DNA of 64,000 nucleotides from Gilvimarinus gilvus (lineage in GTDB: Bacteria; Pseudomonadota; Gammaproteobacteria; Pseudomonadales; Cellvibrionaceae). The stretch covers positions 1 to 64,000 of the forward strand of contig NZ_JAULRU010000783.1 of the NCBI RefSeq assembly GCF_030518155.1. The letters run 5' to 3'. Positions 63,075 to 64,000 of the stretch are shown here, piece by piece; within the stretch, counting starts at the first letter, position 1, and each line of letters starts with the position of its first letter. The position numbers were made by a program, and so were the translations under genes. Below the pieces are notes generated by a model. It searched no databases and was not told the origin of the DNA. It saw nothing but the letters and a program-made list of their open reading frames with translations.

Positions 63075-63848
<774 letters not shown>

Positions 63849-63854
63849 TGTAAG

Positions 63855-63897
63855 TTCTAGTCATAAGTGATATCATAGCACCTACTTCTAGAGATAA
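63855..63897 (+). promoter_or_regulatory. Candidate TnsB-binding repeats
   Basis: TTCTAG-TC-ATAA at 63855-63866 and TTCTAG-AG-ATAA at 63886-63897 are direct repeats 31 bases apart in the transposon end. The second ends at the base before an ATG codon for the following gene. Confidence 0.6.
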
Positions 63898-63903
63898 ATG
63901 GTA

Positions 63904-64000
63904 ATGAGCTCAAATTTTTATACTTCCAGAGCCAGATTGATCGGTATCACGAACCGGAGTGTCTCCGGTGCTATTCCAGATATTGGCTCCTATGAGTCTG
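63904..64000 (+). CDS. Possible TnsA-like endonuclease, start only
   Basis: The frame opens with MSSNFYTSRARLI and continues with NRSVSGAIPDIGSYES up to the window edge. The run RSVSG followed by a PDIG-ES element resembles the N-terminus of TnsA-type nucleases of Tn7-like transposons. Only 32 codons are visible, so the assignment leans on position. An in-frame ATG at 63898 is an alternative start. Confidence 0.5.
   Translation, partial: MSSNFYTSRARLIGITNRSVSGAIPDIGSYES

What the first reader, a model, noticed from the sequence alone, without database searches (positions are those of the whole stretch)
63849..64000. comM broken by the end of a Tn7-like element
ComM homology stops abruptly at a TGT triplet. 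Two spaced TTCTAGNNATAA repeats and a TnsA-like start follow. This position and order fit a Tn7-related transposon targeting comM. The cargo, which may be an accessory island, lies just outside the window.
Basis: partly seen in the sequence, partly recalled or inferred. Interest (0 to 1): 0.8.

Follow-up and report, generated by a model that had tools for sequence, protein, structure and literature searches.

The report
Tn7-like transposon splitting comM, TnsF-less
The window ends about 150 bases into a large mobile DNA element, related to the transposon Tn7 and carrying anti-phage genes, that has cut the DNA-uptake helper gene comM in two, and it belongs to a branch in which the protein that steers its best-known relatives into comM was not found.

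Summary
The window is bases 1-64000 of a 119,089-base contig. Just past its edge lie tnsA, tnsB, tnsC, tniQ and a divergent tnsE-like gene. The other half of comM, with the other element end, is on contig C518. A 5-bp duplication, AGCGA, flanks both ends, which share a perfect 10-bp inverted repeat. Element length is at least 56,125 bp plus an assembly gap. Cargo includes a type II CBASS operon.

This genome has no detectable TnsF (best E 0.031). In a TnsB tree the element falls on the other side of a strong split from the TnsF-bearing elements. (2) Seven TnsF-less elements split comM at three positions (profile ~72, 244, 284); site 72 recurs within 1 bp in four genomes. (3) Two genomes hold a TnsF-bearing and a TnsF-less element in one comM.

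Site 244, this element's own, was seen once, is not specially conserved and does not resemble the canonical site, so a dedicated att site there is unproven. I think TniQ chooses the target without TnsF; this is inferred. Judged a new variant of a known kind.

The parts
63075..63848 (-). 3' part of comM (YifB-family AAA+ ATPase), cut after codon 243 of 498
   Evidence: Pfam; NCBIfam; TIGR00368 243-499; empty site joined
63844..63848 (.). 5-bp target-site duplication AGCGA (second copy at C518:885-889)
63849..63858 (+). perfect 10-bp terminal inverted repeat TGTAAGTTCT, tnsA-side end of the element; its mate ends at C518:884
63855..63866 (+). TnsB-site-like repeat 1 (TTCTAGTCATAA)
   Evidence: 2 in window against 0.08 expected; it does not meet the stricter pattern TTCTRGNNATANATG
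63886..63897 (+). TnsB-site-like repeat 2 (TTCTAGAGATAA), also meets the stricter pattern that occurs three times at the other end
63898..64000 (+). start of tnsA (221 aa, ends at contig base 64563). Followed on the contig by tnsB 64560-66446, tnsC 66456-67349, tniQ 67349-68479, tnsE-like 68589-70436 and cargo to the contig end at 119089

Best explanation
A Tn7-like transposon of at least 56 kb inserted into comM and duplicated AGCGA. It carries TnsA (so cut-and-paste is expected), TnsB, TnsC, a 376-aa TniQ and a divergent 615-aa TnsE-like protein, and a cargo with a complete type II CBASS operon, a type IIG restriction-like enzyme and RHS-type genes. It belongs to a group of elements, separate from Tn6022 (AbaR) in a TnsB tree, in which TnsF, the selector by which Tn6022 finds comM, was not detected. 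Most likely TniQ itself, which in this group usually carries a C-terminal stretch missing from the TnsF-associated TniQs, recognises comM DNA and loads TnsC next to it; TnsA and TnsB then join the ends, with the tnsA side towards the 3' part of comM. The TnsE-like protein would serve the alternative route to conjugating plasmids. Breaking comM should lower natural transformation if this host is competent, which would lower the chance that the element is removed by recombination. Shown: element, ends, duplication, gene content, tree position, lack of a detectable TnsF, repeated choice of comM by the group. Inferred: TniQ as selector, TnsE route, effect on transformation.
For: Duplication, 10-bp inverted repeat and reading frame of the empty site: 498 codons, no internal stop. 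TnsA, TniB/TnsC and TniQ Pfam matches above cut-off; TnsB by Mu-transpos_C above cut-off. Complementary comM halves 1-244 and 243-499, the only two TIGR00368 matches of this genome at E <= 1e-15. TnsF profile: 7 of 14 genomes hit at E <= 6e-137, of which three (G621, G860, G575) supplied the profile and four (G806, G1036, G786, G684) are independent; the other 7, this genome among them, have nothing better than E 0.031. TnsB tree of 16 rows: 6 rows with the TnsF-bearing elements (100/99) against 10 (100/99); this element with P. iridis and G924 (100/99). Site 72 is hit within 1 bp by all four comM elements of its clade; the fifth row of that clade is on a plasmid. In all 11 comM insertions that I read, the tns side faces the 3' part of comM. 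comM is 0.031% of the genome, so an untargeted hit is unlikely.
Against: Site 244 was seen only in this genome. It does not resemble the P. iridis or G964 att sequences (rank 1170 and 869 of 1397 positions) and its flanks are the least conserved of the four sites compared. TniQ is only 376 aa, and PMC10293859 (section 11) calls a small TniQ a hallmark of elements that use another selector. G924, a close relative (TnsB 56%), carries the machinery with comM intact, and so does the more distant G533 with an open comM frame of 527 aa, so the group does not always choose comM. G964's TniQ lacks most of the C-terminal stretch although it sits in comM. P. iridis uses the canonical site without a detected TnsF, so loss of TnsF does not predict the site. 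An assembly gap of unknown size lies inside the element and could hold further genes. The tree root is a midpoint, so 'sister group' is not proven.
Confidence: 0.6

Rival explanations
1. Another selector, not TniQ alone, directs the element: a TnsF too divergent to detect or hidden in the assembly gap, or the TnsE-like protein, which here lies directly behind tniQ on the same strand.
For: TniQ is small (376 aa). In G684 TnsF lies far from tniQ, so distance is no bar. The TnsE-like gene of this element stands next to tniQ, unlike those of seven relatives, which lie near the comM 5' half on the strand opposite to the tns genes.
Against: TnsF was undetected also in six further genomes: four with comM split (G754, G724, G820, G964), G924 with tnsABC-tniQ and comM intact, and G1091 with a broken tnsB and comM intact. 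By eye no listed ORF of the sequenced part (at least 120 aa in L002, 150 aa in L003 and L004) looks like zinc fingers plus recombinase. TnsE-like proteins occur also in elements that carry TnsF (G621, G684), so they are not tied to its loss.
Confidence: 0.27
2. Not exclusive of the others: the group does target comM, but site 244 is a displaced use of the usual region; the same area before Walker B is recognised and the insertion point varies (244, about 258, 284).
For: Three insertion points lie within about 40 codons upstream of Walker B (residue 294): 284 (several), about 258 in the TnsF-bearing G575 with duplication CCAGT, 244 here. The site-244 flanks are not conserved.
Against: Site 72 cannot be explained so; it is about 200 codons away. 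A displacement of 150 bp from Walker B exceeds that of the canonical site.
Confidence: 0.3
3. An untargeted or TnsE-type insertion that fell into comM by chance.
For: Single occurrence of site 244; the element has a TnsE-like gene; Tn6022-type AbaR elements are reported at diverse other sites (PMC7253598, passages read); G924 sits behind a umuC-like gene.
Against: comM is 3.1e-4 of the genome, and relatives in comM (P. iridis, G964 and the four site-72 elements) make chance implausible.
Confidence: 0.05
4. RNA-guided targeting as in CRISPR-associated transposons.
For: A review says that the type I-B1 CAST group includes a case with a crRNA against the comM coding sequence (PMC11406308, passages read).
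Against: No Cas family among the matches of the 28 element proteins scanned against Pfam, and no direct-repeat family of a CRISPR kind on C823 63848-119089 (the 884 bases on C518 and the gap were not tested).
Confidence: 0.03

Closest known systems
Tn6022 / AbaR family (comM-targeting, TnsF-bearing Tn7-like elements)
   Same: Same target gene, same orientation as the TnsF-bearing elements read here, tnsA-tnsB-tnsC-tniQ order, TnsE-like gene, 5-bp duplication; TnsB 32-38% identical to the four TnsF-bearing elements aligned.
   Different: No TnsF detected; tnsE-like directly behind tniQ on the same strand rather than opposite; insertion at codon 243 instead of about 280; other side of a 100/99 split in the TnsB tree.
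Pseudomonas iridis CCUG 67011 element (L045, L057)
   Same: Nearest relative found in comM: TnsB 55% identical, comM split, no TnsF detected (G754), a similar end repeat by eye.
   Different: Canonical site with duplication ACCGC; IetAS-type defence genes; TnsE-like protein of 266 aa; tniQ interrupted at a contig break.
Tn7
   Same: TnsA, TnsB, TnsC, TniQ-domain protein and TnsE-like protein; 5-bp duplication (Tn7's is recalled).
   Different: Breaks comM, whereas Tn7 targets the glmS att site with TnsD (PMC11406308, passages read).
Tsy elements
   Same: Insert in comM (PMC10293859, passages read).
   Different: Use a tyrosine recombinase and an active TnsF-like protein; no Tns genes.

Membership tests
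Tn7-like transposons | TnsA, TnsB and TnsC homologues in order next to one end | tested here: met
Tn7-like transposons | TniQ-domain protein | tested here: met
   PF06527 5e-25
Tn7-like transposons | 5-bp target duplication and TGT...ACA ends with repeated internal sites | tested here: met
Tn7-like transposons | transposition activity | not testable with these tools
   needs an assay
Tn6022 (as described in PMC10293859) | TnsF encoded with a short TniQ | tested here: not met
   no match at E <= 10 with one TnsF, none better than E 0.031 with a three-row profile; the gap inside the element remains untested
Tn6022 (as described in PMC10293859) | insertion in comM near the Walker B codons | tested here: not met
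   comM yes, but 50 codons upstream of Walker B
Tn6022 (as described in PMC10293859) | TnsE gene on the opposite strand | tested here: not met
   tnsE-like gene on the same strand directly after tniQ; hhalign probability 96.6% to the TnsE-like proteins of seven relatives
CRISPR-associated transposon | cas genes and CRISPR array | tested here: not met
   28 element proteins against Pfam and repeats on C823; sequenced part only

The most novel reading that the evidence does not exclude
A second, TnsF-independent group of Tn7-like elements targets comM, uses TniQ (or an unknown partner) as selector, and has moved its insertion point within the same gene at least twice (codons ~72, ~244, ~284). 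Tn7-like lineages have thus settled on inactivating the same recombination gene by different recognition solutions, and one comM can hold a TnsF-bearing and a TnsF-less element at once.
Probability: 0.5. Interest if true: 0.7.

Novelty: new variant of a known kind. Interest (0 to 1): 0.55.

Why it matters
comM insertion matters because ComM helps integrate foreign DNA in natural transformation and because AbaR resistance islands use it (PMC11472951, PMC8787482, passages read). A group that reaches the same gene without TnsF would suggest that inactivation of comM, not one particular recognition protein, is what is kept, and would give a site-specific insertion system with a different recognition rule to test in the laboratory.

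Tried and rejected
Simple deletion of comM: rejected, the other half and both element ends exist. A second copy of the tnsA-side end in the genome: none beyond matches of up to 22 bases. TnsF in this genome: a single-sequence search and a three-row profile found none. The idea that the att site at 244 resembles the canonical att: not supported. With P. iridis the test found the homologous canonical place as best (residue 278); with G964 it did not (best at residue 35), so the G964 half has no working control; with the 20 upstream bases and the duplication alone the ranks were 1100 and 409 of 1397; the downstream-only variant returned no scores because of an error in my script. The idea that each site is the 5' edge of a conserved codon block: only about 258 shows a clear step (21 of 325 positions as large or larger); the step at 72, 244 and 284 is ordinary, and the 20 residues behind 244 are below average (8 rows from 7 genomes). 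TnsE by Pfam: E 0.068 for this protein, none for four relatives. No solved TnsE was matched by sequence. Recurrence of site 244: the one whole-collection scan by TnsB gave a single relative, P. iridis. Of the 18 other genomes, comM was looked at in 6; all 11 were looked at; none is split at 244. The 5 other genomes were not looked at. Structure prediction was not used, because its stated rule does not cover these loci.

Rows left out: G806, G1036 and G786's canonical element were not fetched as regions, and G694's tns genes were fetched but not aligned. G694 carries a TnsF-bearing element with comM intact, so TnsF-bearing elements too can sit elsewhere. G1091 is in the TnsC and TniQ alignments but not in the TnsB tree, because its tnsB is broken. 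G575's TnsF is in two pieces and G684's showed one stop in one of two searches. TnsF was not tested in the plasmid rows of the tree. The genomes were chosen for tns matches, so the share with split comM is not a rate.

Full report
Where the window lies. The window is bases 1-64000 of contig C823 (119,089 bases) of an unnamed 4.78-Mb genome in 852 contigs, so window and contig coordinates are the same. I read on to the contig end (L002-L004) and fetched contig C518.

The break. comM runs on the minus strand up to 63848 and is followed by TGTAAGTTCTAG. The 5' part of comM is on C518 (TIGR00368 1-244 there and 243-499 here) and meets ...AGAACTTACA, which ends at base 884. AGCGA stands at 63844-63848 and at C518:885-889. 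Joining the flanks gives a 498-codon ComM without internal stop, cut after codon 243; Walker A starts at 217 and Walker B at 294. The two ends share 10 perfect bases. TTCTAGNNATAA occurs twice in the window (0.08 expected). The related, stricter TTCTRGNNATANATG occurs three times at the C518 end in 12,000 bases (0.00 expected) and once at the tnsA end in 20,000 bases. That these are TnsB sites is inferred. Element length is 55,241 bases on C823 plus 884 on C518, 56,125 in all, plus a gap: C518 starts inside a HAD/NIF-family gene whose diverged paralogue lies at the end of C823.

Gene content. tnsA (221 aa), tnsB (628), tnsC/TniB (297), tniQ (376). The next gene, 615 aa, has only a sub-threshold TnsE_C match (E 0.068) but aligns by profile with genes of about 580-640 aa in seven relatives (hhalign probability 96.6%, E 4.9e-10). 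Those lie near the comM 5' half on the strand opposite to tns, and PMC10293859 says that Tn6022 carries tnsE on the opposite strand, so I call it TnsE-like. Cargo: a methyltransferase resembling type IIG restriction enzymes and a complete type II CBASS set (patatin effector, DncV-like cyclase, E1-E2, JAB); RHS-repeat proteins, a non-specific endonuclease and an ISL3 transposase. Of 28 element proteins scanned against Pfam, 10 had no match at the limits used; not every cargo ORF was scanned.

The best-known comM-targeter. [quoted passage not shown] TnsF binding needs a 10-bp region in the Walker B codons of comM. The same paper says that a small TniQ is a hallmark of elements with a further selector.

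Relatives. A scan of the GTDB contigs by TnsB gave one close relative, Pseudomonas iridis CCUG 67011 (TnsB 55%), whose element splits comM at the canonical place with duplication ACCGC. Its tniQ is interrupted at a contig break. A TniQ search of 369 genomes of the class gave 6 at E <= 1e-10, this one included; a TnsB search of 390 genomes of the order gave 19 at E <= 1e-30, this one included; a TniQ-profile search of 398 genomes of the family of G724 gave 11 at E <= 1e-20. comM was then examined in 16 genomes chosen for tns matches: 4 intact (G694, G1091, G924, G825) and 12 split: this one at 243/244; G724 and G820 at about 72; G860 and G786 at both about 72 and about 284; G684, G621, G1014 (taken as the P. 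iridis genome from matching coordinates), G806, G1036 and G964 at about 284; G575 at 255/256. In G860 the 3' piece lies in the opposite orientation to the other two, so that locus has been rearranged; G786 has all three on one strand.

Duplications read by eye: G724 TTTAG, G820 CCAAG, G860 and G786 site-72 elements CCTTG, G964 GGTGG, G684 GCCTC, G575 CCAGT. The four site-72 insertions fall within 1 bp of each other at the codons Pro-Lys of LPKDGG.

TnsF. One TnsF (G621) was searched in 8 genomes: found in G621, G694, G684 and G575, no match at E <= 10 in this genome, G724, G533 or P. iridis (G754). A three-row profile (G621, G860, G575) was searched in 14 genomes: found in those three by construction and, independently, in G806, G1036, G786 and G684; no match at E <= 0.01 in this genome (0.031), G754, G724, G820 (0.886), G964 (0.377), G924 and G1091. 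In G860 and G786 the single hit lies in the canonical-site element, not in the site-72 element.

Trees. In the TnsB tree (16 rows) the four TnsF-bearing elements that I placed (G684, G621, G575, G860 canonical) group with two plasmid elements (100/99). The other ten rows (100/99) are the seven comM elements without TnsF, G924, G533 and an element on P. aeruginosa plasmid pPUV-6. G533 and G860's canonical element are long branches, and the root is a midpoint, so the split is shown but the word sister is not. The TnsC tree (17 rows, same call) has the same split; several of its inner forks are open.

TniQ. Eight of nine TniQs from the TnsF-less side share a C-terminal stretch (around PYWL...Y.PS..E...A..YL...G) that the four TnsF-associated ones and the A. 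baumannii plasmid one lack; G964 is the exception. In the Protein Data Bank the TniQ profile matches chains named TniQ and one named TnsD, in its first 203 of 385 positions. So the selector role of the C-terminal stretch is a guess from comparison.

Site 244. It is 50 codons before Walker B, is unlike the P. iridis and G964 att sequences, and its 20-residue flanks are on average less conserved (0.62 and 0.54) than those of 72 (0.87, 0.82), about 258 (0.52, 0.81) and 284 (0.81, 0.86). It was seen once. This speaks against a refined att site at 244 and for a displaced insertion or a recognition sequence farther off.

Consequences. In A. baumannii, acquiring AbaR4 in comM lowers transformation tenfold (PMC8787482, passages read). 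comM loss is more frequent in non-transformable strains, and where no AbaR was found a CBASS locus interrupted it 40% of the times (PMC11472951, passages read). Whether the present host is competent is unknown. Of other TnsF-less elements, P. iridis and G724 match IetAS and G964 matches SIR2-HerA models. Defence cargo in Tn7-like elements is known (PMC8649781, start of abstract and one passage seen).

Novelty. In the searches for comM with Tn7-like, TniQ, TnsF, Tn6022, attachment site and TnsD I saw, in the listings and in the papers opened, no account of a TnsF-less comM-targeting group or of insertion sites 72 and 244. Most subscription papers are not in that library and supplements were not open to me; the large survey in PMC10293859 may contain such loci unremarked. 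A review (PMC11406308, passages) reports a CAST that reached comM by a crRNA, so repeated choice of comM is itself not new.

Noticed in passing
G786:C234:63455-146381 (parts in L142, L143): One comM split twice, by a TnsF-bearing element at about codon 284 and a TnsF-less element at about codon 72; G860 has the same two splits with a rearranged 3' piece.
   Followed up: partly
L004 6189-10827: Complete type II CBASS operon (patatin, DncV-like cyclase, E1-E2, JAB) in the cargo of this element.
   Followed up: yes
L004 18921-20000 and L015 2-529: Two diverged HAD/NIF-type phosphatase genes flank the assembly gap inside the element.
   Followed up: no
L050 6198-9829: TnsB and TnsC of an element on P. 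aeruginosa plasmid pPUV-6 (typed conjugative) have zero branch length to those of the site-72 element of G786, so this group also reaches plasmids.
   Followed up: partly
L145 2430-17340: A compact 15-kb element without detected TnsF in comM, with SIR2-HerA genes and a long unknown ORF overlapping the end of its tnsE-like gene.
   Followed up: partly
L081 9232-11145; L139 437-2266; L141 4288-6093; L143 4290-6092: TnsE-like proteins of about 600 aa next to the comM 5' half; of five TnsE-like proteins scanned only the one of this element reached even E 0.068 with the Pfam TnsE model.
   Followed up: partly
L084 (G694:C16:63749-68836): An intact comM with an additional 5' fragment of comM about 3.5 kb away.
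   Followed up: no
L146 1158-1230: The G924 relative starts directly behind a umuC-like gene while comM is intact, so another target was used.
   Followed up: partly
G621:C26:774159-789571 (L133, L137): The comM 3' half of G621 is itself broken again about 15 kb further on.
   Followed up: no
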